64,000 nucleotides of DNA from Candidatus Zhuqueibacterota bacterium (lineage in GTDB: Bacteria; BS750m-G25), in assembly GCA_016783505.1 (NCBI GenBank), contig JADHWK010000002.1, forward strand, positions 27,154-91,153. The letters run 5' to 3'. A program made the translations under genes and the position numbers. Below the pieces are notes generated by a model. It was not told where the DNA came from, searched no databases, and worked only from the letters and a program-made list of their open reading frames with translations. Of the stretch, positions 2,907 to 63,890 are shown in pieces (position 1 is the first letter of the stretch; each line of letters starts with the position of its first letter).

Positions 2907-5900
2907 ATGATGGCCATTAAAATCAAATGGGACCACGAATTTATTAAACAAGTTGCAGCTCAAAATGAGAAATATAAAGATGATCCACTAGTAGAAAAAT
3001 TAACGGATTTTATTGCTAAGAGTGTCTACTCATCCCCATCTCATTTTGCATTAGAAATGATCCAAAATGCTGACGACGAAAAATCTACTGAGATAAAATT
3101 TTATTTTGAAAAGAATAATAAAATCATAGTTACTAATAATGGTAAAAAATTTTCAAAAGATGATGTCAGGACAATTTGTTACGCAGGGCATAGCCTAAAG
3201 AAAAACAAAAAGGGATTTTTCGGAATAGGATTTAAATCGGTTAAAAGGATAACAGATACTCCTCAAATTATATCTAGCAATTACAATTTCGTTATCCATA
3301 AATATTATCACCCAGAACCATGCAAAGAGATCCCAGAAGATATAACATTCAACCCTCAAAAAGGTGCAATTTTTATTTTGCCTTTGAAATCTAAAAAAGA
3401 ATATAACAACATTTTCAAAAATTTTATGGAAGAAACCAATGAGAATCTATTATTGTTTCTTGATTATATTAAGAAAATTTATATTATCGACAGGAGGAAA
3501 AAAGAAGAAAAGACTCATGTTTTGTCTTATGACCGTAAATATGGAATTTTAGAAAATTCATATACGGGTAATAAATCGTTTTGGAAAGTATTTAAGAAGA
3601 TAATCTATGTACCCAAACGTATTCGTAAACCAATGGGAAAAGAAAGGGTAAGAAAAACTGAGATGGCTTTAGCATTTCCAGCAGATATAAAGGATACCCC
3701 AGATCCCCAAAAACTATTTTGTTATCTGCCGACAGAGCGTTTCACCGGTTACCCCTTTATAGTTCAGGGCGACTTTTTACCCATATTAGGCAGGAGCAAC
3801 ATAGACGAAGAAGATCCTTGGAATAAACACCTATTAAACCAATTGTCAGAATTAATTGCAGACGCCTTTGAAAATCTAAGAAACTATCCCAATTTTAGAT
3901 TGCGAATACTTTCATTTCTTCCACTAAAGGAAGAATGTCATGATGAGTTATTTATTAAGTATATAGACGCTATCTATACGGAATTAAAGAACAGAGAGAT
4001 TGCATTCACACGAGATATATGTTTTAAAAAACCGACAGATTCTATCGATCTTTCCCGCGATCTATGGGAGCTCTTTAGCAATGATGATTTACAAGAGATT
4101 TACAAAAATGAAAAATTTGTGATATCGGACGGGTATAATGACCATGAAAGGAAGATTTTATCTCTGTTGGGCATGGAAACGTTCGGATTAGATAATATAA
4201 TCTCATTCTTCAAAAATAATAAGGGTATAAGGAAGAAAGTTGTGGATCCAAATTGGTTTGTTTCTATTTATGCATACATAAATGACGATTTTGACGACTA
4301 TGAGAAAGATGATTTGAGGAATGTTCCATTTCTCTTATCTGAAACAGAGGAGCTTATTTACTCAGAAGATCCAAAAAAAATGGATAAACCAAGGCTAATT
4401 GCCAATCAGTATATGAACAAGGAAACCTCATTTTTTTCTGAATTGTTCAATAAAGATAAACTAATATTCCTCCATAAGAGATTTAGAATATCTAGAAATC
4501 AAAAGAAGAATAAAAATTACGATCGCCGACTCGATAAGGTTCATCAGTTATTTGAATTTCTTGGTGTAATTAGAATGGTTGAGGCGCATCATATTATTAC
4601 ACAACTCATATTACCAAAATTTCAGGAAACGCGAAACGGGAAACGTCTAGGTCATAAAAAAGCCATTTTATTCACAAATTTTATTCTTGAAAATTTGTCA
4701 TATTACCGTAAAATATACGGAAGCCGTACAAAAACTGATGATTGGGAAATTTTCTCAGACATTAGGTCAAAAATCCTAGTACTTGCAGAAAAGAGGGATT
4801 CTACTAGTAAGAAAAGATATGTCTTTTTATCCCCAACGGAGGTTTATAGACGTGGTGAGGGAAAGAAACTACTCCCTGAAAAATATTTTAGGGGTTTGAC
4901 TGAGGTACCATTTATCTCCAGAAAATATTTTTCCAAAAAGATCTTAGGTAGTTTTACTAGCATACCGATTACGCAAGCAAGTAAAAGACGTAAGATATAT
5001 TCTTGGGATGCTTTCTTCCATTTGATGGGGGGTTGGGAAATCCCAAGAGTAATACCAATTAGTCGGAGTTATTCTCGATACGACTCAAGACTAAAAGATG
5101 ATTTCCCAAATGTCGATTGGGACTATGAATATGATTCTACAACAGGATACGAAATTAAAGATTGGATAATGCCAGAGTTAACTGATACCATTCGAAAGTA
5201 CATCAACACAAAGGTTAAAGTTGAAAAAGACCGATTGAAACATCGGTTAGTTTATATTAGAGAAAGCGTTGCAAAAAATTGGAAAAAATACAAAGATTAT
5301 AAAAAAGCAGAAGCCTCATATTTTTATTATTCAGATGGGGATATCAAAGTAGGTTCAACTTTTTATCAACAGCTAAAAAAACCTTGGTTTCCAAGATCTA
5401 CCGACGGAAAATTAATAATACCTTCAAAAAATTACAAAGATACAATTGATAATAGATATTTAGCGCCCAAAGGCTCTGATTTTATAGATATACCCCCAGG
5501 GTCGAAAGAATTTTATAAGGAAATAGGGGTAATTGAAGATCCTGATCCAAAGGATGTGCTTGAAAGATTGCAGAAGATAAAAGCACATTGGGATAAAGTT
5601 AACAAGATACCCCTAGATAGCTTTAAGAAAATGGAGGCTTATTATAAGTATTTAGTTGATAAAAGTAAAACAAATCCTGATTTAAAAGATGCAATCGAAA
5701 GTATATTTTCAAAAAAGTATGTAATATTTCTTCCTACAAAAGTCCGTGGTAAAACGAAAATATGGTGGCATAGAGACCAAGTATTTGCAATAGAAACTTT
5801 GGATCATTCCCTTACACCATTTTTTCAATCGTTATTTCAGGAAGGAGCATACAGCATAGAACTAGAAGAGACATTTATTTCCCTAGGCGTTAGAATTAGT

Positions 5901-7421
5901 CCGAGCTTTAGAGACTACAAAGAAACCTTTCAACACATTATGAAGGAGTGGGGAAAAGCCTCAACAAACAAAAGATTGGAACTTAAGGGAAAAATTAGTT
6001 ATGCTTTAGAAGGGCTAAGTACATTGATCGAAAGCGAATCGGTAGACGATGATGAAAAAATTAGGAAACTATTCGATGAAAATATTTTCTTAACCGATCA
6101 GAATGAATTTTTAACACCCAATGAAATATATTTGAAAGACGATTACGAAATCTATGAGGTATTTCAAGATTGTATTCCCACATTGTGGTACAACGGTGAA
6201 ATAGCATCTATTTCATCATCATTGATAAGGATAGGTTTCAACTCGTTAAAAGATTATAAAGACAAAAGAAAAGCAAGGTTTATTGATAAAGAATTTATTC
6301 ATAAAGATGATCTTCCAAAAATGATAGAATTTTGTGAAGTTATTGAGGCCTTCATAGAAAATAGATTCAGTACATTATATGATAAGCAAAGGGAGAATAT
6401 CGCTAGATCTAAAGATTTACAAATTTATACAGCAAAAAATATAAAAGTTACTTACTTCTTAGAGGGCAAAAAGCGAATAAAAAATAATGTGCCCATTTAC
6501 TTATCGAAAAATGAACTTGTGATATCTACCGCCGAAAACGATCCATGGTTAGAAGTAATCAGAGATGACTTTTCAAAATGTTTGTCCTCAATTTTTGGAG
6601 ATTTAGGTCCTCATTTGAGACCTTTGATCAATGATTTGCATCAAAACCCAGAAGACATTAACGTTGTCATTCAAAAGTGGGGGTTAGAAAGGGGACGTGT
6701 ATTTAAAAAATATGTTGAGGAGGAAAGCCAAGTAATCAAGATGCCTTTGGCTCAAGCGAAAAAAGAACTTGAGACCTTTGGAGAAGAGGTCGAAGAAGAA
6801 CCAATAACCCAAGTAGTTGATATCACAACCACACCAACCCAAACACCACAACCCAAGAGCAAGGATGAGGAAGTTTTCCCGTTAGAAACAATCAACGGTT
6901 TTATTATAAAAAACATTAAAACAGGCGAAGTGACTACATTACCACTCAAAAGAAGAAAGATAAGAAAAAGTAAATTGCCAAAAAAGAAGGGAATTTCTAA
7001 AACTTATACCCCATTTTCATCTCAAATGACGGAGGATATAGCTGTAGAAATCGTAAAAAAGTTTGAAGAATCTCAAGATCGAGTGGATATAAAAGATGTG
7101 AGAGATGATGAAGATGAGGGTTGTGACTTAATTTCATCTGGGAGGGGTGGGAATCGTCTGATAGAAATAAAAGCTTCCAAGGGTAAAAGACCGCAAATTA
7201 AACTTCGGCCATCTCAATATAAAAGAGCAAAACAAGATAAAGAGAAGTATTACATTTACAAAGTAGAAAACATAGAGAAAGGAAAATTACCACATATCGA
7301 AATAGTTCAGAATCCGATAGAGAATCCAAAGATTAGAATTGTTCATTTAGGAGAAGTTAAAATAGAAGGATGGGAAAACTCGGATAAAATCTCAATCGAT
7401 GTAAGGATTGAAGAAAATTAG
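2907..7421 (+). CDS. Giant sacsin/Nov-type HSP90-like ATPase with C-terminal DUF3883-type nuclease domain
   Basis: 1504 residues. The N-terminus is a GHKL (HSP90-like) ATPase of the sacsin/Nov type: N-box E50-MIQN54-ADD, a G1-like box VTNNGKKF at 75-82 and G2 box GFFGIGFKSV at 103-112. Residues about 1365-1490 resemble DUF3883, a PD-(D/E)XK-like domain: D-E-G-C-D around 1402-1405, IEIKAS around 1419-1424, and the family's LRPSQYKRAKQ segment. The long middle is all-alpha and unassigned. Family knowledge: sacsin-like ATPases joined to nuclease domains cluster in defence islands. Context: restriction relics directly upstream and base composition more A+T-rich than the flanking backbone. GGGGGTGAG precedes two adjacent ATGs; the second, at 2910, leaves better spacing. 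No partner gene is seen, so it may act alone. A defence role is inference. Confidence 0.8.
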   Translation: MMAIKIKWDHEFIKQVAAQNEKYKDDPLVEKLTDFIAKSVYSSPSHFALEMIQNADDEKSTEIKFYFEKNNKIIVTNNGKKFSKDDVRTICYAGHSLKKNKKGFFGIGFKSVKRITDTPQIISSNYNFVIHKYYHPEPCKEIPEDITFNPQKGAIFILPLKSKKEYNNIFKNFMEETNENLLLFLDYIKKIYIIDRRKKEEKTHVLSYDRKYGILENSYTGNKSFWKVFKKIIYVPKRIRKPMGKERVRKTEMALAFPADIKDTPDPQKLFCYLPTERFTGYPFIVQGDFLPILGRSNIDEEDPWNKHLLNQLSELIADAFENLRNYPNFRLRILSFLPLKEECHDELFIKYIDAIYTELKNREIAFTRDICFKKPTDSIDLSRDLWELFSNDDLQEIYKNEKFVISDGYNDHERKILSLLGMETFGLDNIISFFKNNKGIRKKVVDPNWFVSIYAYINDDFDDYEKDDLRNVPFLLSETEELIYSEDPKKMDKPRLIANQYMNKETSFFSELFNKDKLIFLHKRFRISRNQKKNKNYDRRLDKVHQLFEFLGVIRMVEAHHIITQLILPKFQETRNGKRLGHKKAILFTNFILENLSYYRKIYGSRTKTDDWEIFSDIRSKILVLAEKRDSTSKKRYVFLSPTEVYRRGEGKKLLPEKYFRGLTEVPFISRKYFSKKILGSFTSIPITQASKRRKIYSWDAFFHLMGGWEIPRVIPISRSYSRYDSRLKDDFPNVDWDYEYDSTTGYEIKDWIMPELTDTIRKYINTKVKVEKDRLKHRLVYIRESVAKNWKKYKDYKKAEASYFYYSDGDIKVGSTFYQQLKKPWFPRSTDGKLIIPSKNYKDTIDNRYLAPKGSDFIDIPPGSKEFYKEIGVIEDPDPKDVLERLQKIKAHWDKVNKIPLDSFKKMEAYYKYLVDKSKTNPDLKDAIESIFSKKYVIFLPTKVRGKTKIWWHRDQVFAIETLDHSLTPFFQSLFQEGAYSIELEETFISLGVRISPSFRDYKETFQHIMKEWGKASTNKRLELKGKISYALEGLSTLIESESVDDDEKIRKLFDENIFLTDQNEFLTPNEIYLKDDYEIYEVFQDCIPTLWYNGEIASISSSLIRIGFNSLKDYKDKRKARFIDKEFIHKDDLPKMIEFCEVIEAFIENRFSTLYDKQRENIARSKDLQIYTAKNIKVTYFLEGKKRIKNNVPIYLSKNELVISTAENDPWLEVIRDDFSKCLSSIFGDLGPHLRPLINDLHQNPEDINVVIQKWGLERGRVFKKYVEEESQVIKMPLAQAKKELETFGEEVEEEPITQVVDITTTPTQTPQPKSKDEEVFPLETINGFIIKNIKTGEVTTLPLKRRKIRKSKLPKKKGISKTYTPFSSQMTEDIAVEIVKKFEESQDRVDIKDVRDDEDEGCDLISSGRGGNRLIEIKASKGKRPQIKLRPSQYKRAKQDKEKYYIYKVENIEKGKLPHIEIVQNPIENPKIRIVHLGEVKIEGWENSDKISIDVRIEEN

Positions 7422-46751: not shown

Positions 46752-47651
46752 CTATTTAAAAACTATTTTCCTAAGTGCTTCTTTTAGCTCATCTACCCTT
46801 TTTGAAATTTTCCCCTTGTTATACTTTCCGTCTTTAATTTCAGGTTCCTTGTCTGATATATAAACTATTTGAGGATCTCCACCCACATAATCATCAATTT
46901 CTTCCCTTATCCAATAAATACAAGCTGCTATTCGAGAGACTATCACTTTACATTCAAGGGGAATTTTACCGTTATGCCGAGGAAAAAGATATTTCGCTAG
47001 TGTTCTGGCATAATCCCTTCCATGTCCAACTAAACAGGCATATTTAATTTTCGACCCAAATCCACGGGGGCCAATTTCGTATAATCTCGCATCTCCTTTG
47101 CTTAGTTCAGATAAACCCCCCAATATAAAGTGTAAAGGGTATTCTCCAATTTTGGGCCCGTATCTTTCTTCGGTTTTCTCTACCAAGTCCTCCGCTATCA
47201 TTTTGATTGAAAGTAAAGAATTAATTTTCCCCTCTTGAATGTTTGCTATCAATGTTTTTTCAAATATTTCTATGAAATCATCTATTACCCCTATTATTCC
47301 AGCACTGGCAAATATAATAGGAGCTCCTTCCACAGTAGTAATAGTTTTTACTTTCTTTTCATAATCAGTCTCTCCGCCCCTCATTGTTTTTGTATCTCCC
47401 CCAAGAACAATTCCATCTTTTCCTCTCACTCCTATTATTAGAGTAGACTTTCCCAGCATGTCCTCACCCAGCATTTTCTTATATAACCACCTCTTATATT
47501 TTTCCTTATTAGCTTCATTTAGTTCATCCAAAAGTTGAATTTCTTTTGGATATGCTATTTTAGGAAAAATCTTCTCTAATCCTTCTATCTCTTTCTTGAT
47601 TTTCTTCTTTCCCCCAGCATAATTACCAACATCCATCTTCCGCAATTCCAT
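46752..47651 (-). CDS. Stand-alone proteasome beta-type Ntn hydrolase with long propeptide
   Basis: 299 residues from ATG 47651, which has GGGGGAGAG before it; an ATG seven codons earlier lies in that site. Residues 1-69 are a basic, helical propeptide. The hydrolase begins at T70 (KS-TLIIGVRGKDGIVLGGD) and the catalytic set matches archaeal beta subunits: Thr1=T70, Asp17=D86, Lys33=K102, spaced exactly 16 and 16. Later GIIGVIDDFIEIFEKTL and HFILGGLSELSKGDARLYEI fit the fold. No alpha subunit, HslU or Mpa ATPase is nearby. It may form a self-compartmentalised peptidase like Anbu; target unknown. A repeat-block promoter lies at 47873-47901. Confidence 0.78.
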   Translation of the reverse strand: MELRKMDVGNYAGGKKKIKKEIEGLEKIFPKIAYPKEIQLLDELNEANKEKYKRWLYKKMLGEDMLGKSTLIIGVRGKDGIVLGGDTKTMRGGETDYEKKVKTITTVEGAPIIFASAGIIGVIDDFIEIFEKTLIANIQEGKINSLLSIKMIAEDLVEKTEERYGPKIGEYPLHFILGGLSELSKGDARLYEIGPRGFGSKIKYACLVGHGRDYARTLAKYLFPRHNGKIPLECKVIVSRIAACIYWIREEIDDYVGGDPQIVYISDKEPEIKDGKYNKGKISKRVDELKEALRKIVFK

Positions 47652-47872
47652 TCTCTCTCCCCCTTCTTTCATTTATAATTATCTATATCTATATTTCTAG
47701 GCTTTATTCAAATTCCCATTTGCTAATTTCAGATCATCCCAATCAAAAAATAAATAATTCCAGGCTTTTCTAAATCATATGGCAAAAACCAGACCAATTT
47801 TAAGTGTAGCTGGATCGCTATTTTTGAATGAACTAAAGGGCAAGTTTTGCCTGGCATGTTTTGAACGAATTC

Positions 47873-48099: not shown

Positions 48100-49719
<1,620 letters not shown>

Positions 49720-55439: not shown

Positions 55440-58400
55440 TCATAATACATCTTCCAAATTTATTGCTTTGAAATTTTTAGTATCTTCGGATGCAATCTCT
55501 GATAATTTTTGTCGAAATAGATCAAAAAAATCGAAATTACAAGTAGTAATAATAATTTGTTTTCTGGCTCGAGAAAGACCTATAATAATGTCAACAAAAG
55601 ATAATGTATTCATTTCATCCATTTGTTGTACGGGATCATCAATTAGAATGGTTTGAAGAATTGATATGTTTTGATATATTACTCTGGTTAAAAATATTGA
55701 TAAGGCTAGAATATTTAACTGTGCTTCACTCAAATAAGAAGAAGGTGTATACTCAATTTCACCAAAATAATTCTTAAGTAATATATATAAACTTCTTTTT
55801 CTTTGATCCTTAGACATTATTGGTTTCAATTGAACTTCATTAAAATATTCATGTCGGATAAATTTTTTATATATTTCATTGATTAAAGGGCTATATTGGA
55901 CTAAGCTTTTTTTAAATGCAGAATAGGATACAGACGATAACTCTTTATTTAACTTTCTGAGATTATTATAACAAATTTCCCATCTTTTCTTCTCGTAACT
56001 ATATTTTTCTATTCTGTTTCGAATATTCTCTGATTCTTCTTTTGTTCTAATCAGCCCAAAGAGATTGTTCAGATCTTTTATTTTTGAAATTAATTTATAA
56101 TATTTTTCTTGATCATATACATCTATTTTTAAAGGATCAATACCATCCTTAATAGAATATTTATCTGAAAGATTATATCTCTGTATTAAAGATTCCATCT
56201 CTACTAGATCTTTCTCAATTTCATCAATCCTTTGTTGTAAGATAACCTTATATTTTAGTTGTTCTTCTAGTTCTTCTAATTCATCTTTATATTCTTTTAG
56301 ATCAGTCTCTATTTGGTTTATTTCATTATCAATATTATCAATATTTAAAATTTTATCTTCAGGAATAACCTTAATTATTTCTTCTATTATATTTGATATT
56401 GTATCTCTAGTTTCTTTGTGTTTATTTTTGTAATATTCATAATTTAGATAATGAATTTTATCAACTATTAATTCTGTTTCATTTCTAATAGATTCGACAT
56501 CATATTTTTTTATTTCATTTTTTAATTCTAGTAATTGGGAATTAGATTTATCAAGCAGTGTTTTTATTTCTTCCTCGGTAATTGATTTCTTTTTACAAAC
56601 TTTATTTAACAGTTCTTCAAATTCAATTATATCATTTTTCATATCAGAATTTTCTTTTTCTAATTTTTCCCTTTCCTCTTTTTTGCGCTGAATTATATTT
56701 TTTTCTTCTTCTATTGCTAATTTTTTATATTTTTTGTTTATATTAAAGATAAAATCTTTTAGTTCTTCTCTATATTTTCCATCAGTAATTTGTTTAATTA
56801 TGTTCTCATTTAACTCATTTTTATCACTATAAGAATTCCCACAACATGGACATACAAATTTATCCATTACGTTAAAGTAATCTGTTTTATTTATAATATT
56901 TTTTATAACATCAATATCATTATAATCTATGTCCTCAGATTGAATCAAACCTTTAATTTCATTCTCATGACGATCTAAATAAAAGTCGATTTCCGAAATT
57001 ATTTTACTATTTTTACTCAATAGTATTTTTTTTACTTCAATTTCTTTCAGCCTCTTTTTGATATATAGGAAATTCTCTATATTAGCTACTAAATCATTAA
57101 TTTTCCTACTTAAATCAATTTTACTTTTTTTAAATTCAATCAATTTTTCCTCGAGTAGTTCTTTCTTTTTAAGTAAGGCTTCATTCTCTTTTCTTTTTAT
57201 TTCAATTTTTTCTCTTAAATCTTTTTCTTTTGAATATAAGTCTTTAAACTCATTAAACCTTGTCTTGAAATCATTCAATATTCTATTATTTTCATTTAGT
57301 TCTTTCATTTTACCATTTAATACTTCAATTTTATATTTATTATGCTCAATAGTTCTAATCTCATTTTTTATGCTACTTTGAACGTTTTCTATATAATAAA
57401 GAAAATTATCTGCTTCAATATTAATATTTAGACTACTTAATATGCTACTTATTTTTATGTATAATTGATTCAATTTATTAATTGCTCCTTCATGTGTCTT
57501 TTTCTTTTCTAATTCATTATTCAATATTTTCATTAAAAGATCACAAGAAATCATATAGTTATCAATAGGTAATTGACAATCCGTTATACTCTCATCTAAC
57601 TTTATTCTAATTTCATTTTTTAATTTATCTATCAATTTTTTATATGCTATAATACCGTATTCTTGGTCTATCTTATGACCTTTTTTTTCAATCTCGGATC
57701 TAGTTCTTGGTCCATATTTATGACTAATACTCCTAATATTAGATTTATATTCTTTTATCAAATCATCTAAGAGATTAATTTTTATATGTTTAATTTCTGA
57801 ATATACTCTTGTCAATCGACGTTTTAAAGCTTCAATTTTTCCAAAACCAAACATTTCGGAAATTAAATCATATCTGTTTTTTCTTATCTCGTTTTCATCA
57901 CTTGTATTAACACCATATATAAAATGTCTAATAGAATGTTGCCCAAGGAAGTGTGTATGTAATAGTATATCCAAATATTCTTTCTTTTTTATTAATTCCT
58001 TATTATCAGTTAAGAAAGTTATAATATCCTCATTTTTAACTTGTTTGTTGTTTAAGAATAAAATGCATTTATTTTTTTGTATTTTTGTTTCAATTTTAAA
58101 TATATCATTCTTTGATATCCCTGTTATGTCTATTAGTGCTTCATCTTCCATTGATTCACAATTTATTAAGGCAGAGTATTTTTTCTTAGTTTTTGGTTCC
58201 ATGTCTGGATCATATTCCAGTCGGTTTATTTTATTAAATATTGAGAATTCAACAGCATCAACTATTGAAGTTTTACCTCTTCCATTTTTACCATAAATCA
58301 CTACTACATCACTATCTAAATCTAATTTTATACTTTTAAAGCATCGAAAATTTTTTAACTCTAAAGATTTTATTCTGCTTATTTCTACAGACAGTTCTTC

Positions 58401-59015
58401 TTTTATAGGTGATACTAATTTTTTTTGCTTTTGCAATTTATTTTTAAAGTCTTCAGAAAATAACCAGCTATATTTTTCACTTTTTTCTATCTCCTTAACG
58501 ATTGCCGGAGCTTTTTTTGAAATTAATAAGCTTCTAAGATCTCTATCAGATATAGTATCCTCTATTAAAGGGATATATTCTCTAAGAACTTTATTTTTAT
58601 CTGAAATCCAGACTGGTATTCTGTTAGCTAACGACTTTTCAATAATTTTTTTATTATACTTGTCAGGTAATTCAATAAATACTTTTCTGAAAAAATACTC
58701 ATTACTTTCAGCCAGAGATAATTCTTCAAATAAATCATTTTCCCGCACAACTTTTTCGGGAATTACATAGATAAGATATTGATTTATTTTATTTTTTTCC
58801 TTCAGATATAGTTCCCTTTGTAATCCAATCCACGATTTGATAAGTTCAATATTGTCTGTTATTTGGCAATATAATGAGCTGAATAAATTTTCAGCTTTGA
58901 ACAGTATATGATCGCTCTCTTCTTCCATTCTATACAGATTATACCCAAATCTTTTATCACGGCGGATGAAGTCTTCTGCTATATCACCAATTTTAGATAA
59001 ATTGAAAGCATTCAT
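55440..59015 (-). CDS. SMC/Rad50-type ATPase with ABC-3C middle-component-like N-terminus
   Basis: 1191 residues. Residues 1-215 form an extra domain (e.g. KINQYLIYVIPEKVVREN, EYFFRKVFIELPD) resembling ABC-three-component middle components. The ATPase starts with SLELKNFRCFKSIKLDL; Walker A GKNGRGKT is at 242-249. Long coiled coils flank a zinc-hook-like C722-P-C724-C725. Near the C-terminus come the ABC signature LSEAQLN, Walker B with TILIDDPVQQMDEM and the switch IIITTCNFDF. Rad50/RloC-like ATPases sense DNA ends or foreign DNA and activate effectors. The start overlaps the nitrilase-like gene by 23 bp, so both are translated together. Very A+T-rich compared with etfA. A defence role is inferred. 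Confidence 0.85.
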   Translation of the reverse strand: MNAFNLSKIGDIAEDFIRRDKRFGYNLYRMEEESDHILFKAENLFSSLYCQITDNIELIKSWIGLQRELYLKEKNKINQYLIYVIPEKVVRENDLFEELSLAESNEYFFRKVFIELPDKYNKKIIEKSLANRIPVWISDKNKVLREYIPLIEDTISDRDLRSLLISKKAPAIVKEIEKSEKYSWLFSEDFKNKLQKQKKLVSPIKEELSVEISRIKSLELKNFRCFKSIKLDLDSDVVVIYGKNGRGKTSIVDAVEFSIFNKINRLEYDPDMEPKTKKKYSALINCESMEDEALIDITGISKNDIFKIETKIQKNKCILFLNNKQVKNEDIITFLTDNKELIKKKEYLDILLHTHFLGQHSIRHFIYGVNTSDENEIRKNRYDLISEMFGFGKIEALKRRLTRVYSEIKHIKINLLDDLIKEYKSNIRSISHKYGPRTRSEIEKKGHKIDQEYGIIAYKKLIDKLKNEIRIKLDESITDCQLPIDNYMISCDLLMKILNNELEKKKTHEGAINKLNQLYIKISSILSSLNINIEADNFLYYIENVQSSIKNEIRTIEHNKYKIEVLNGKMKELNENNRILNDFKTRFNEFKDLYSKEKDLREKIEIKRKENEALLKKKELLEEKLIEFKKSKIDLSRKINDLVANIENFLYIKKRLKEIEVKKILLSKNSKIISEIDFYLDRHENEIKGLIQSEDIDYNDIDVIKNIINKTDYFNVMDKFVCPCCGNSYSDKNELNENIIKQITDGKYREELKDFIFNINKKYKKLAIEEEKNIIQRKKEEREKLEKENSDMKNDIIEFEELLNKVCKKKSITEEEIKTLLDKSNSQLLELKNEIKKYDVESIRNETELIVDKIHYLNYEYYKNKHKETRDTISNIIEEIIKVIPEDKILNIDNIDNEINQIETDLKEYKDELEELEEQLKYKVILQQRIDEIEKDLVEMESLIQRYNLSDKYSIKDGIDPLKIDVYDQEKYYKLISKIKDLNNLFGLIRTKEESENIRNRIEKYSYEKKRWEICYNNLRKLNKELSSVSYSAFKKSLVQYSPLINEIYKKFIRHEYFNEVQLKPIMSKDQRKRSLYILLKNYFGEIEYTPSSYLSEAQLNILALSIFLTRVIYQNISILQTILIDDPVQQMDEMNTLSFVDIIIGLSRARKQIIITTCNFDFFDLFRQKLSEIASEDTKNFKAINLEDVL

Positions 59016-60780
59016 TTAATGTCTCCTTTATATTATCAACTTTTTTATAGCTTTGGCGTGCATTTAATTTATTAATTAGATAGCAAAGAGTTAAAACATA
59101 TGGATATTTAGGCTTTGTTATTTTATTATAACTGTCGGGTCTTTTCATTGTCTTGACAATTTTATTAAGGTTTAAAAGTTCATTAAATCTTTTAGGTTCA
59201 CCGTTCCAATCCAAATATAAAGGACCTAATCTCTGTAATAGAACTATTTGCATATCTCTATACTGAGAAAGTAATAATTCACCTTTTTCTTGTCTAAATT
59301 GTAAGTCTTGCATATTATCACAATCAATTATAGAAATAAAAATATCATCGCTCTTAATCTTATTTTCTTCAATTTCAATACCTTCATAATTTGTATTAAG
59401 CATAGCAAGTGAAACAAAAAAATATTTAAAAGTTCCTTTGTCTTCGTCCCATAAGTCGCAATTAATAGCTCTTTTGTTTTCTTCTCGAATAAATAATAGG
59501 GTTCTAATGACTTCACATGGTCTTTGCATAAATAAATTACAAAACATATTTTCATACATTTCTATATTGCTGAAATATTGCCTTAAGAGATATTTAGAAA
59601 ATAATGTTTCTATAAAGTCAGAAAAATCATCCAATAAAATTTCTTTAAATTCATATATTTCTGGAATTTGTTTTATTTCTGTTAATTCAAAATTAGTATT
59701 AATCTTTTCTAAACCAGGTTCCTCTATGGGAATTACGTTTTCATCTTGAAATCGAAATGTTGTATCGTTCATGTTTAAAATAAATGATATCACGCCCGGA
59801 TATCTTAGTCTCCAAAGTATATACTGAAGGCTGTCTTGTTCTCCAGCTTCTTTTTTGAATGACTTCCAAGCAAACAAATTCTCTGCTCTCATATCCTTTA
59901 ATGTTTCAGGAAATCTACCTCTATTCATTACTGCGACATTTGAATTCCTAAAGTGTTTTACATCTTCTGTATCTACACTGTTTATAGAGCACACCATTGT
60001 TTTTGTAGTATCAATTGTATGACTCTTGAAGTAGAGACTTTTTATTATTTTAGTGTAGTGATTTCCAATTGGATGTTTATTGTTTTGAATTAAAAACATG
60101 AGATCAATTTTCTCATGTCTTGGATTTTTATAAAAATAGTCTAAATCTTTAAACAAAGTATATATTATAGGCAGTTTACCTCTTTCAAGTATGAAATCTG
60201 AACAGATTAAAATCAGTATAGTATATACGCCTAGGTTGAAAATATATATTATTTTGGAAATGAATTGTTGTGTTGTTTCATAACGACTTTTGCTTAATTT
60301 TGGTTGGTAATAAATATAATTTTTCCCATTTTTGTCTTTAATCAGAATCGCTGCAGTATTGACAAATTTAATATTTCTTCCAAAATCTACTTCGTTAAAA
60401 TCATCTTTACTATTTGAATTTGAAATTAATTCTAAAAATTGGTTTTTAGTTATTTGTTCTAAGCCAAAAATAATTATGGTATTTGTATTTATTTCTCCAT
60501 TTTTTAATTTCACAATCATTAATTCAGCTGCTTCCATACTTACTGAAAGTTCTGGAAATACTATAAAATTTGGATTACCTTCTGAAAATATATTATTATT
60601 ATATTTATTTAGTACATTTTCAACTATGTGAATATTATTTTGTTTTTCCTCTTCCTTAATTTTATAAATTCCATCTTTTTGACATTGTTCTGGCATTTGT
60701 ACTTTTACAATGCCAATTCGGTTTCTATTAAAATATTCAATATTTGGTATTTTGATGTCTTTTATCTTAAATTCATTCAT
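58993..60780 (-). CDS. Nitrilase-superfamily protein, first gene of the SMC operon
   Basis: 595 residues. The N-terminal 300 residues carry a complete nitrilase triad: E77 in NFIVFPELSVS, K161 in YYQPKLSKSRYE and C193 in LILICSDFILE. Nitrilases cut C-N bonds (amides, nitriles, also NAD-related substrates). The C-terminal half is helical and unassigned, perhaps for contact with the ATPase. Family knowledge: nitrilase domains occur as effectors in DRT1 (UG1) defence reverse transcriptases. Here it overlaps an SMC-like ATPase gene, so it is probably the effector enzyme that the ATPase controls. A+T-rich; no other gene in the operon. Confidence 0.8.
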   Translation of the reverse strand: MNEFKIKDIKIPNIEYFNRNRIGIVKVQMPEQCQKDGIYKIKEEEKQNNIHIVENVLNKYNNNIFSEGNPNFIVFPELSVSMEAAELMIVKLKNGEINTNTIIIFGLEQITKNQFLELISNSNSKDDFNEVDFGRNIKFVNTAAILIKDKNGKNYIYYQPKLSKSRYETTQQFISKIIYIFNLGVYTILILICSDFILERGKLPIIYTLFKDLDYFYKNPRHEKIDLMFLIQNNKHPIGNHYTKIIKSLYFKSHTIDTTKTMVCSINSVDTEDVKHFRNSNVAVMNRGRFPETLKDMRAENLFAWKSFKKEAGEQDSLQYILWRLRYPGVISFILNMNDTTFRFQDENVIPIEEPGLEKINTNFELTEIKQIPEIYEFKEILLDDFSDFIETLFSKYLLRQYFSNIEMYENMFCNLFMQRPCEVIRTLLFIREENKRAINCDLWDEDKGTFKYFFVSLAMLNTNYEGIEIEENKIKSDDIFISIIDCDNMQDLQFRQEKGELLLSQYRDMQIVLLQRLGPLYLDWNGEPKRFNELLNLNKIVKTMKRPDSYNKITKPKYPYVLTLCYLINKLNARQSYKKVDNIKETLNECFQFI

Positions 60781-61284: not shown

Positions 61285-61656
61285 TTAGCTTGTTGGGGTG
61301 CTTGGTAGATTCACCAGAATAGATGTTCCTCCGGGATCAACTTTATTACATTCAGTACTGTAATGATCATATAGATATTTTTCGATTCCATCACGATCGG
61401 ACTGTTTACCAACCTTTGCATAATGAAATCCTGAGGTGTATTTCACATTTTCTTTTATGCAATTATTTTTTTCCTCATCACTCAAGTGCTCCAATAATCG
61501 ATTCTCAAGATTTGAGGCCTGTCCTATATAGAAGGCTTCCCATCGGTCACTCTTATATTTTACCCATAAAAGATAAACACCAGCTGACGTCGGTACGTAT
61601 TTCTTTACTTCGCTCTCATTGTATGGGGTATGAAATGACGACCATTCTATGTTCAT
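61285..61656 (-). CDS. GIY-YIG nuclease-domain protein
   Basis: 123 residues. The GIY-YIG core is present: G26-V-Y28, Y43-I-G45, R53 (NLENRLLEHL) and the metal-binding Glu at about 92 (GIEKYLYDHYS). Compact GIY-YIG proteins of this size occur alone in mobile cassettes and in defence islands; the target is unknown. The gene lies between two attC-like palindromes in the direction expected for an integron cassette. AAAGGAGG precedes the ATG. Confidence 0.85.
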   Translation of the reverse strand: MNIEWSSFHTPYNESEVKKYVPTSAGVYLLWVKYKSDRWEAFYIGQASNLENRLLEHLSDEEKNNCIKENVKYTSGFHYAKVGKQSDRDGIEKYLYDHYSTECNKVDPGGTSILVNLPSTPTS

Positions 61657-61669
61657 TTTTCCTCCTTTC

Positions 61670-61805
61670 TATTAACGGATATGGCATCACCTGCCCAAAG
61701 GCTAGGAAGCACCTAACCTACTGATAGGATACTCTGAACTTGGATTTTAAAATGGTTGGATTTGCACAGAGCCCTTTTGGTCAGGTGAATGCTATGGTTA
61801 GCTGC
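61670..61805 (-). repeat. attC-like palindrome upstream of the GIY-YIG gene
   Basis: Minus strand: GCTAACC, ATAGCATTCACCTG.CCAAAAGG, a long loop, then CCTTTGGGCAGGTGATGCCAT and GTTAATA. The arms pair over about 20 bp with an extra base in one arm, as the extrahelical bases of attC. Outer cores are imperfect. Confidence 0.45.
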
Positions 61806-61855
61806 TTATTGTTATTAAAGGAATTAACTTTATCAGATGTAATATAAAAATAATT

Positions 61856-62392
61856 TTAATTCCCCAATAAAATTTGACTCGAACGTAGATGTAGTAATTC
61901 TAAAATATTATCATTCAATATTAAGTCTGTTTTTTTTCTACCTGAATGATAGCCTTCAATTGTTGAAGATGGTTGATTTGATAATATTTTTTCTTTCTGA
62001 CCGTAATTACCAGTCTTTGGATCTCCCCAAATTCTAAAAAATCCTTTTACTTGATAACTGGAAAATTTTAAACCTTCTAATCCTATATATATATCACCAC
62101 CATATTGATTGATTGGTACAGTTCTCAGGCTATAATAAGTTGAATACGGTAAAAAGAATAAGTGATTATTTATTAAAACATAATATTGATAATCTTCACT
62201 ATCGAACAAATTCGAAAATTTATCTTTTTTAGGTAAAATCCCATTGCATTCATAATTTAATTTTTTATATGTAAATTGTAGCTCAACAATAAAAGGACAA
62301 ATTACATTTGGAATAGAAGTAATAAAAATATGATCACCAGTTGAAATATTAAATTTGAATTGAGAGCTACGAACAAAACCAGAAGGCGGCAT
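61856..62392 (-). CDS. Hypothetical protein
   Basis: 178 residues, beta-rich, no signal peptide, family not recognised. Segments such as NISTGDHIFITSIPNVICPF, QYYVLINNHLFFLPYSTYYS and GYHSGRKKTDLILND may hint at a nuclease-like or substrate-binding fold, but that is not enough to assign one. Very A+T-rich; 15 bp downstream of the next membrane gene, same operon. Confidence 0.6.
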   Translation of the reverse strand: MPPSGFVRSSQFKFNISTGDHIFITSIPNVICPFIVELQFTYKKLNYECNGILPKKDKFSNLFDSEDYQYYVLINNHLFFLPYSTYYSLRTVPINQYGGDIYIGLEGLKFSSYQVKGFFRIWGDPKTGNYGQKEKILSNQPSSTIEGYHSGRKKTDLILNDNILELLHLRSSQILLGN

Positions 62393-62407
62393 TTTTACAC
62401 TCCTTTT

Positions 62408-62830
62408 CTAAAAAATTTTATAAAACTTTTTTAAAAAACTAACTCGAGATAAATTCGAAACTAATGCAATAAAATACATTGCAAAACTAAGAACCATTAA
62501 TGCATCATGAGTTGTTTTATCAAGTGGAAGTTTATTTGCAATTCCGTAAAATATTAAACCTATTAAAATTGAAAAAATAAGAAAAATTATACCATATTTT
62601 TCTGAGTCAATAAATTCTCTAACAACTGATTTAATTTTTTCTAACAAATCATTACAATAGTCACAATTTCCCTGATAAGTTGAAATTTTTGTTCTTAGTT
62701 TTCTCAAATAAAAACCGGCATACAATAAAACAACAACGACAATAATTATTGCAATAGAATGATTATAACAAAAAGTTCCTAAAAGTTTTATAAATTCTAA
62801 AAAATCTTTATTACTAAAGTAATCATTCAT
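62408..62830 (-). CDS. Hypothetical membrane protein
   Basis: 140 residues with three or four membrane helices (IAIIIVVVVLLYAGFYL, IIFLIFSILIGLIFYGIA, ALMVLSFAMYFIALVSNL) and a central loop with C-D-Y-C. Its ATG overlaps the end of the symporter gene by 8 bp. The family is not recognised. Confidence 0.6.
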   Translation of the reverse strand: MNDYFSNKDFLEFIKLLGTFCYNHSIAIIIVVVVLLYAGFYLRKLRTKISTYQGNCDYCNDLLEKIKSVVREFIDSEKYGIIFLIFSILIGLIFYGIANKLPLDKTTHDALMVLSFAMYFIALVSNLSRVSFLKKFYKIF

Positions 62831-63890
62831 TTTCTACCTTGTATTTTTCAATCGATGTTAATAATAAATATAAGATAGTTGAACCAATAACACTAAAAAT
62901 GGCAGCAGATGAATAAGGATTGATAATCTCATTATTTATTATAAGAGGAATTAAACATAAAACAACTCCCCCAATAATACTTACATAAGCTGATAATCTG
63001 TTTAACTTTTTTGAAATGAAGATTAAAATTATTGATGGGAATAAAGCGAGTTGAAAAGCATAGAATGTATATAGAATATTATCAATACCAGAAACAAATT
63101 TTCTAACTACAACATAAAGAATAAAAAATATGAATGTATATGCAATTGTCCACATTCTGGATTTAGAAAGCTGAGCTTTTTCAGAAATATTACCCTTAAG
63201 AATAATATCATAATATGTAGTATATGAAATTGAAGAAATTAAACTATCCAAGGTCGAATACATTATAGAAATCATGCAAAAGATGAAAATAAAAATATAT
63301 ATATTGTCTATTAAAGATACGGAGCTAAATGAAGCAGCAGCAAGATTCTGAAGTGCAGTCCATGCATCTGGAAGATTAAATCCTACATAGCGAAGTGACA
63401 TGCCAAAGAAAATTGCTATTATCCAAGTTATTGGCGAATAGATTGAAATGAAAGAAATAGTCTTACTTAGTTCTTTCCTTAACTTTTCATCATATTTAAA
63501 AGATGCTAACCTTTGCCAGCCAGAAATGTCAACTATTTGCCAAAGGCCATTGGCAAGAAGAAGGCTAATTAAGGATAGTTTTCCAAGTGAAAAAACATTA
63601 AAGAATTTCTGTTCTTTCCAAAAGAATGAAAATGAATCTTTTATATTTAAGTTACTACTTAGGTTAACAATAATAAAAATTGTTCCAATTAAAAAAGCAA
63701 AAAGACTTAAATAAAGTGTTGTAGAATACTTTTTAGGAAATACGTTTGGATTAATAGTGTTAAGTTTTTTAAAAAGAATATTTAATGCTAATAGGCTAAA
63801 AAAAGATAGAACAAATAGAATTACTCCAGTATAAACATAGCCATTGTTTATTACCTTTATATGTATTATCTTGAGGGGGTGTTTACACTT
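62823..63890 (-). pseudogene. 5'-truncated sodium:solute symporter (SSS family)
   Basis: The frame is open from 63890 to the stop at 62823 (about 355 residues) but has no start codon before an internal ATG at 63401. It holds LLLANGLWQIVDISGWQRLA, ITWIIAIFFGMSLRYVGFNL and ISIMYSTLDSLISSISYTTY, as in the C-terminal two thirds of SSS transporters. The first ~150-200 residues are missing: the homologous frame ends near 63870 at a GGGGGTGTTTACAC sequence. Probably broken by an insertion or deletion. Confidence 0.7.

What the first reader, a model, noticed from the sequence alone, without database searches (positions are those of the whole stretch)
55440..60780. Two-gene nitrilase plus SMC-type ATPase operon: candidate undescribed defence system
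Seen: a 595-residue protein with a full nitrilase Glu77-Lys161-Cys193 set overlaps by 23 bp a 1191-residue Rad50-like ATPase with Walker A, zinc-hook-like CPCC, ABC signature and DDPVQ-type Walker B. The ATPase has an extra N-terminal domain that resembles ABC-3C middle components. Known: SMC/RloC/ABC-3C ATPases often drive conflict systems, and nitrilase domains occur in DRT1 defence reverse transcriptases. Inferred: the ATPase senses foreign DNA and switches on a nitrilase that hydrolyses a metabolite such as a nucleotide cofactor. I do not know a described system with this pair.
Basis: partly seen in the sequence, partly recalled or inferred. Interest (0 to 1): 0.87.

Follow-up and report, generated by a model that had tools for sequence, protein, structure and literature searches.

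The report
Nitrilase-armed Lamassu system, LmuC fused
These two genes are a Lamassu-type bacterial immune system, in which a DNA-sensing SMC-like ATPase probably switches on a nitrilase enzyme that shuts down infected cells; the general type is already catalogued, and the less usual feature is that the normally separate middle subunit is fused onto the ATPase.

Summary
A 595-aa nitrilase-fold protein (58993-60780, minus) overlaps by 23 bp a 1191-aa SMC/Rad50-like ATPase (55440-59015, minus); E77, K161 and C193 are conserved, and the ATPase has Walker A, CPCC hook, signature and IDDPVQ motifs. The novelty claim does not hold: PADLOC matches the ATPase to LmuB (6e-64) and the nitrilase domain to LmuA (1.4e-23), and a 2023 review already lists "C-N hydrolase" among LmuA effectors. 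This is a Lamassu/ABC-3C system. The ATPase's N-terminal ~200 residues look like a fused LmuC (ABC-3C Middle Component 1): profile-profile E=9e-5, and 3e-9 for bacterial relatives. The nitrilase + extended-ATPase arrangement recurs in eight other bacterial genomes and three haloarchaeal plasmids, with Glu-Lys-Cys invariant in all twelve nitrilases; PADLOC's LmuA models miss most of them. The window's nitrilase is closest to stand-alone nitrilases beside argG, so recruitment may have happened more than once. Likely mechanism (inferred): LmuB senses foreign-DNA structures and frees LmuA, which oligomerises into an active nitrilase that hydrolyses an essential metabolite, aborting infection. The substrate is unknown. 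Verdict: known kind, modest variant.

The parts
58993..60780 (-). lmuA: nitrilase-type effector gene, 595 aa
   Evidence: ORF; PADLOC LmuA PDLC03850 1.4e-23; fold
59791..60780 (-). nitrilase (C-N hydrolase) domain, residues 1-330; catalytic E77 (60550-60552), K161 (60298-60300), C193 (60202-60204)
   Evidence: E, K, C invariant in 24 stand-alone and 11 paired relatives; model spans 16-331 against nitrilase structures
58996..59790 (-). LmuA C-terminal region, residues 331-595; probable docking part, no known match
   Evidence: no Pfam match above cut-off and no PADLOC match; low pLDDT; no profile match to other LmuA C-termini
55440..59015 (-). lmuB with fused lmuC: SMC/Rad50-like ATPase gene, 1191 aa
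   Evidence: PADLOC LmuB PDLC03865 6e-64 over residues 214-1173
58401..59015 (-). N-terminal LmuC / Middle Component 1-like domain, residues 1-205 (core motif residues 78-114)
   Evidence: hhalign to seven MC1 proteins E=9e-5, score 34.9, shuffles at most 18.1; bacterial relatives E=3.4e-9
58266..58292 (-). Walker A GKNGRGKTS, residues 242-250
56841..56852 (-). zinc-hook-like CPCC, residues 722-725
   Evidence: both Cys shared with separate-MC1 ABC-3C ATPases
55719..55733 (-). ABC signature LSEAQ, residues 1095-1099
55626..55643 (-). Walker B IDDPVQ, residues 1125-1130
58993..59015 (-). 23-bp overlap of the two genes; AAGGAG at 59023-59028, 7 nt before the lmuB start, suggests coupled translation

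Best explanation
This is a two-gene Lamassu (ABC-3C) defence system with a nitrilase-type LmuA effector, in which the middle component LmuC is fused to the N-terminus of the SMC-like ATPase LmuB. Shown by sequence and model: LmuB identity, nitrilase fold with an intact Glu-Lys-Cys set, an MC1-like N-domain, and recurrence of the pair. Inferred: the LmuCB dimer, joined at its zinc hook, holds LmuA inactive. ATP-bound LmuB recognises DNA ends or hairpin/replication structures of phages or plasmids. LmuA is then freed, oligomerises as nitrilase-superfamily enzymes must, and hydrolyses an essential amide- or nitrile-bearing metabolite or cofactor, which stops growth of the invaded cell (abortive infection). 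The substrate is not known.
For: LmuB 6e-64 and LmuA 1.4e-23 in PADLOC. Nitrilase fold and invariant Glu-Lys-Cys. MC1-like N-domain (Pfam MComp1 in G051). The same nitrilase + extended-ATPase order in G051, seven relatives and three haloarchaeal plasmids. Review lists C-N hydrolase effectors for LmuA and zinc hooks for LmuB (PMC10586767). LmuA is liberated and tetramerises on activation in Cap4-type Lamassu (PMC12409362). Nitrilase domains need oligomerisation, and DRT1 uses one for abortive infection (PMC13275509). Acquired-looking 25% GC operon.
Against: No phage or plasmid assay exists for this locus. The LmuA profile match covers only residues 17-270, and the same profile also hits stand-alone nitrilases beside argG. 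The C-terminal half of LmuA matches nothing. The MC1 match of the window's own domain is moderate (probability 59%). No substrate is indicated.
Confidence: 0.72

Rival explanations
1. The nitrilase is not the killing effector but makes or removes a small molecule that signals or protects, while the ATPase acts on DNA by itself as a Rad50-like machine.
For: The nitrilase's nearest relatives are stand-alone proteins beside argG with a presumably metabolic role; no substrate is known.
Against: The pair recurs as neighbours, usually overlapping or within a few bases, in twelve systems. In Lamassu the gene at this position is the effector and its enzymatic activity is required wherever tested (PMC10586767). 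ABC-3C ATPases have no nuclease of their own.
Confidence: 0.12
2. The operon is a DNA-repair or chromosome-maintenance pair of the Rad50 type rather than a defence system.
For: Rad50/RecF-like profiles hit the head domain; Rad50-type zinc hook.
Against: Scores lie far below the Rad50 and RecF curated cut-offs (for example 33 bits against 1000). No Mre11-like partner next door. The operon is AT-rich and patchy: no nitrilase match in 144 other genomes sampled across the domain.
Confidence: 0.04
3. It is a Lamassu relative whose N-terminal ATPase domain is unrelated to LmuC, so LmuC is simply absent as in two-gene Lamassu type I.
For: No direct Pfam or PADLOC match of the window's domain; the AlphaFold2 model of the domain alone is unusable.
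Against: Profile-profile match well above shuffled controls; MC1 core motif in place; Pfam MComp1 passes its cut-off in the equivalent domain of G051.
Confidence: 0.12

Closest known systems
Lamassu type II / ABC-3C systems with Middle Component 1 (LmuA-LmuC-LmuB)
   Same: LmuB-type ATPase with zinc hook and DDP(V/I)Q-like Walker B; effector gene upstream; MC1 domain between effector and ATPase
   Different: MC1 is fused to the ATPase instead of being a separate gene; effector is a nitrilase rather than the hydrolase, MBL-trypsin or HamA-like proteins seen in the plasmid examples opened here
Lamassu with C-N hydrolase LmuA (PADLOC PDLC03850; listed in PMC10586767)
   Same: N-terminal nitrilase domain matches at 1.4e-23, next to LmuB
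   Different: The model's C-terminal half (positions 286-604) is not matched; the model also hits argG-linked nitrilases
Nitrilase + extended-LmuB pairs of G051 relatives and haloarchaeal plasmids (found here, unnamed)
   Same: Nitrilase of ~545-630 aa directly upstream of an SMC ATPase with ~200-aa MC1-like N-extension; Glu-Lys-Cys conserved
   Different: ATPases carry a DEP-type Walker B instead of DDPVQ; separate clade in both proteins; nitrilases not recognised, or only marginally (E=0.001), by PADLOC LmuA
DRT1 (reverse transcriptase-nitrilase)
   Same: Nitrilase domain as likely abortive-infection effector; weak profile match (E=0.001)
   Different: No reverse transcriptase; sensor is an SMC-like ATPase
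Rad50-Mre11
   Same: ABC heads, coiled coil, zinc hook
   Different: No Mre11; far below Rad50 equivalog cut-offs

Membership tests
Lamassu (ABC-3C) | SMC-like ATPase of the LmuB family | tested here: met
   PDLC03865 6e-64, PDLC03861 2e-39
Lamassu (ABC-3C) | LmuA effector gene adjacent, with an enzymatic N-terminal domain | tested here: met
   PDLC03850 1.4e-23, residues 17-270; directly upstream, 23-bp overlap
Lamassu (ABC-3C) | LmuC / middle component (optional; absent in some systems) | tested here: met
   Fused rather than separate: hhalign to MC1 E=9e-5, controls at most 18.1 against 34.9; moderate strength
Lamassu (ABC-3C) | Zinc hook and modified Walker B typical of LmuB | tested here: met
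   CPCC at 722 and IDDPVQ at 1125, as in separate-MC1 relatives
Lamassu (ABC-3C) | Anti-phage or anti-plasmid activity requiring both proteins | not testable with these tools
   needs a bench assay
Nitrilase superfamily (C-N hydrolases) | Glu-Lys-Cys catalytic residues | tested here: met
   E77, K161, C193 invariant in relatives
Nitrilase superfamily (C-N hydrolases) | alpha-beta-beta-alpha nitrilase fold | tested here: met
   AlphaFold2 model, VIA Z 17.1 to 2e11, Foldseek E 9e-9 to AmiF; parts of residues 196-330 have low confidence
Nitrilase superfamily (C-N hydrolases) | hydrolysis of a C-N bond | not testable with these tools
   needs an enzyme assay
DRT1 | reverse transcriptase domain in the same protein | tested here: not met
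   no RT match in either protein or in the neighbouring genes scanned
Rad50-Mre11 / SbcCD repair | Rad50 equivalog score and adjacent Mre11/SbcD | tested here: not met
   33 bits against cut-off 1000; neighbours are nitrilase and ETF alpha, no Mre11

The most novel reading that the evidence does not exclude
Nitrilase-armed Lamassu with LmuC fused to LmuB is a distinct, widespread subtype spanning bacteria and haloarchaea. Its nitrilase effectors were recruited at least twice (a window/argG-like lineage and a G051/haloarchaeal lineage), and they share with DRT1 an undiscovered substrate whose hydrolysis aborts infection.
Probability: 0.3. Interest if true: 0.62.

Novelty: new variant of a known kind. 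Interest (0 to 1): 0.38.

Why it matters
Nitrilase domains now appear as likely effectors behind two unrelated sensors, Lamassu SMC ATPases and DRT1 reverse transcriptases, while their substrate is unknown. A compact two-protein Lamassu in which the middle component is tethered to the ATPase would simplify structural and biochemical work on how LmuB/LmuC hold and release the effector. The survey also shows that current LmuA profiles miss a recurring nitrilase lineage and cross-react with stand-alone nitrilases beside argG.

Tried and rejected
Searches that led nowhere: tblastn of the nitrilase in plasmids and phages; viral-contig scans with each protein and with a nitrilase alignment; an LmuB alignment too diverged to scan; PDB sequence search with the nitrilase and with MC1. 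The genome-contig scan returned 62 stand-alone nitrilases of mostly 380-390 aa, most with an argG signature nearby and no recognisable LmuB partner; kept as a control, not as partners. AlphaFold2 of the isolated ATPase N-domain from one sequence was unusable (mean pLDDT 50.6). The G520 and G530 hits lack E, K and C and were discarded. An apparent conserved third gene in some G051 relatives overlaps the ATPase gene and may be an antisense reading frame; only the ~420-aa gene of G051/G508 looks real. Whether the LmuC-LmuB fusion arose once or twice is unresolved (support 74/82, long branches). Primary papers Krishnan 2020 and Haudiquet 2025 are not held, so a prior description of such fusions cannot be excluded. 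PADLOC LmuB model PDLC03861 (1213 positions) aligns its position 194 to window residue 199, so at least one catalogued LmuB family already has a long N-extension. Considered and rejected: DRT1, Rad50-Mre11 repair, a coincidental neighbour pair.

Full report
OBSERVATION. All named motifs are at the stated residues. A ribosome-binding-like AAGGAG lies 7 nt before the ATPase start, inside the first gene. The two genes are 24-26% GC, whereas bases 1-55139 average 45.5%; the composition changes sharply just before 55,440. The operon therefore looks acquired. The window lies in a 2.5-Mb draft genome estimated 60% complete.

THE ATPASE IS LmuB. PADLOC gives LmuB PDLC03865 at 6e-64 over residues 214-1173, far ahead of other defence ATPases. 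Rad50, RecF and SMC models score far below their cut-offs. In plasmids the nearest relatives are mostly ATPases of ABC-three-component systems. In six of the loci opened, an MC1-type gene lies directly upstream of the ATPase: annotated as middle component 1 in five of them, and in L014 an unannotated gene of the same position and sequence. CPCC, the signature and DDPxQ-like motifs are shared with most of these.

THE N-TERMINAL DOMAIN IS PROBABLY A FUSED MIDDLE COMPONENT. The first ~205 residues of the ATPase have no significant Pfam or PADLOC match of their own. A profile of seven MC1 proteins matches them at E=9e-5, score 34.9; 60 shuffled versions reach at most 18.1. The aligned stretch carries the MC1 core, ending in R-K. 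The same extension in bacterial relatives matches MC1 at E=3.4e-9, probability 96%, and in G051 it passes Pfam's MComp1 cut-off. Three of eleven extensions tested match MComp1 at E<=0.01. Haloarchaeal extensions match more weakly (E=0.0026, score 27.0 against at most 20.1 in 100 shuffles). LmuC is thus most likely fused, not absent.

THE FIRST GENE IS A NITRILASE-TYPE LmuA. PADLOC gives LmuA PDLC03850 at 1.4e-23 over residues 17-270, and a weak hit to the DRT nitrilase. A caution was found: the same model hits stand-alone ~390-aa nitrilases, encoded beside argG, at E 4e-21 to 3e-29. A genome-contig scan found 62 such genes, mainly in Geobacterales and Methylomirabilota, none with a recognisable LmuB partner. 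So the identification as LmuA rests on that hit plus its position next to LmuB. E77, K161 and C193 are invariant in these relatives. A model built with 24 of them aligns to nitrilase-superfamily structures with Z up to 17.1. The C-terminal ~265 residues are poorly predicted and match nothing, which fits the reported variability of LmuA C-termini (PMC10586767).

THE PAIR RECURS. (i) Three haloarchaeal plasmids carry a 576-579-aa nitrilase followed by a 984-997-aa SMC ATPase with the extension: halophilic archaeon DL31 Halar_0475/0474, Natrarchaeobaculum sulfurireducens and Natronorubrum bangense. (ii) A search with the window + haloarchaeal alignment found the same order in a complete 6.8-Mb bacterial genome, G051. 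(iii) Searching its relatives found seven more full-length nitrilases in two families. In six, the next gene was recognised directly as an ATPase of 1108-1147 aa with Walker A at residue 229-263; in the seventh (G594) it lies within a longer open frame and was placed by its Walker A. In the twelve nitrilases including the window's, Glu, Lys and Cys are all conserved. Most of these nitrilases are missed by PADLOC LmuA models.

RELATIONSHIPS. Trees of the ATPase heads and of the nitrilase domains agree. G051 and the haloarchaea form one group (100/99). The window ATPase falls with ABC-3C ATPases that have separate MC1 genes, and the window nitrilase falls with the argG-linked nitrilases. The window branches are long, so this is a hint, not proof, of repeated recruitment of nitrilases and possibly of repeated LmuC-LmuB fusion. 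The window Walker B is IDDPVQ; the G051 and haloarchaeal forms are (L/M)DEP. One catalogued LmuB model (PDLC03861) already has 193 positions before the part that aligns to window residue 199, so long N-extensions are not unknown in LmuB.

KNOWN OR NEW. [quoted passage not shown] So the combination is already within Lamassu. I found no text describing LmuC fused to LmuB, but two primary papers were not readable. I file it as a variant of a known kind, with that caveat.

MECHANISM. Inferred from Lamassu work: LmuB senses DNA ends, hairpins or replication structures (PMC10586767, PMC12904381). [quoted passage not shown] Nitrilase-superfamily enzymes need oligomerisation for activity, and DRT1 uses a nitrilase domain with unknown substrate for abortive infection (PMC13275509). 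The most economical model is release-and-oligomerise activation of the nitrilase, with hydrolysis of an essential amide-bearing metabolite. None of these steps was tested for this locus.

VERDICT. Observation confirmed; 'undescribed system' not supported; Lamassu family with nitrilase effector well supported, fused LmuC moderately to well supported; mechanism plausible; substrate unknown.

Noticed in passing
window 2907-7421 (+): A 1504-aa protein matching TmtA (Tiamat defence protein) in PADLOC at E=3.8e-93, in a second AT-rich block (33% GC), with a phage-antirepressor-like ORF6N protein upstream at 1599-2105.
   Followed up: no
L002, L003, L005, L020-L081: A conserved stand-alone nitrilase family of ~390 aa encoded beside argG, mainly in Geobacterales and Methylomirabilota; function unknown, and it triggers PADLOC's LmuA model PDLC03850.
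   Followed up: partly
window 61285-63401 (-): Upstream of the operon, in the same AT-rich stretch: a small GIY-YIG protein (Pfam E=7.7e-5) and three ORFs (61856-62392, 62408-62830, 62823-63401) with no convincing family.
   Followed up: no
L084:3091-4356 (-) and L100:9888-11150 (+): A conserved ~420-aa gene of unknown function (56% identical between the two) directly downstream of the nitrilase-LmuB pair in G051 and G508; absent from the window.
   Followed up: partly
window 46752-47672 (-): 306-aa protein with a proteasome-subunit domain (Pfam E=2.6e-11) close to groEL (48100-49719); type not determined.
   Followed up: no
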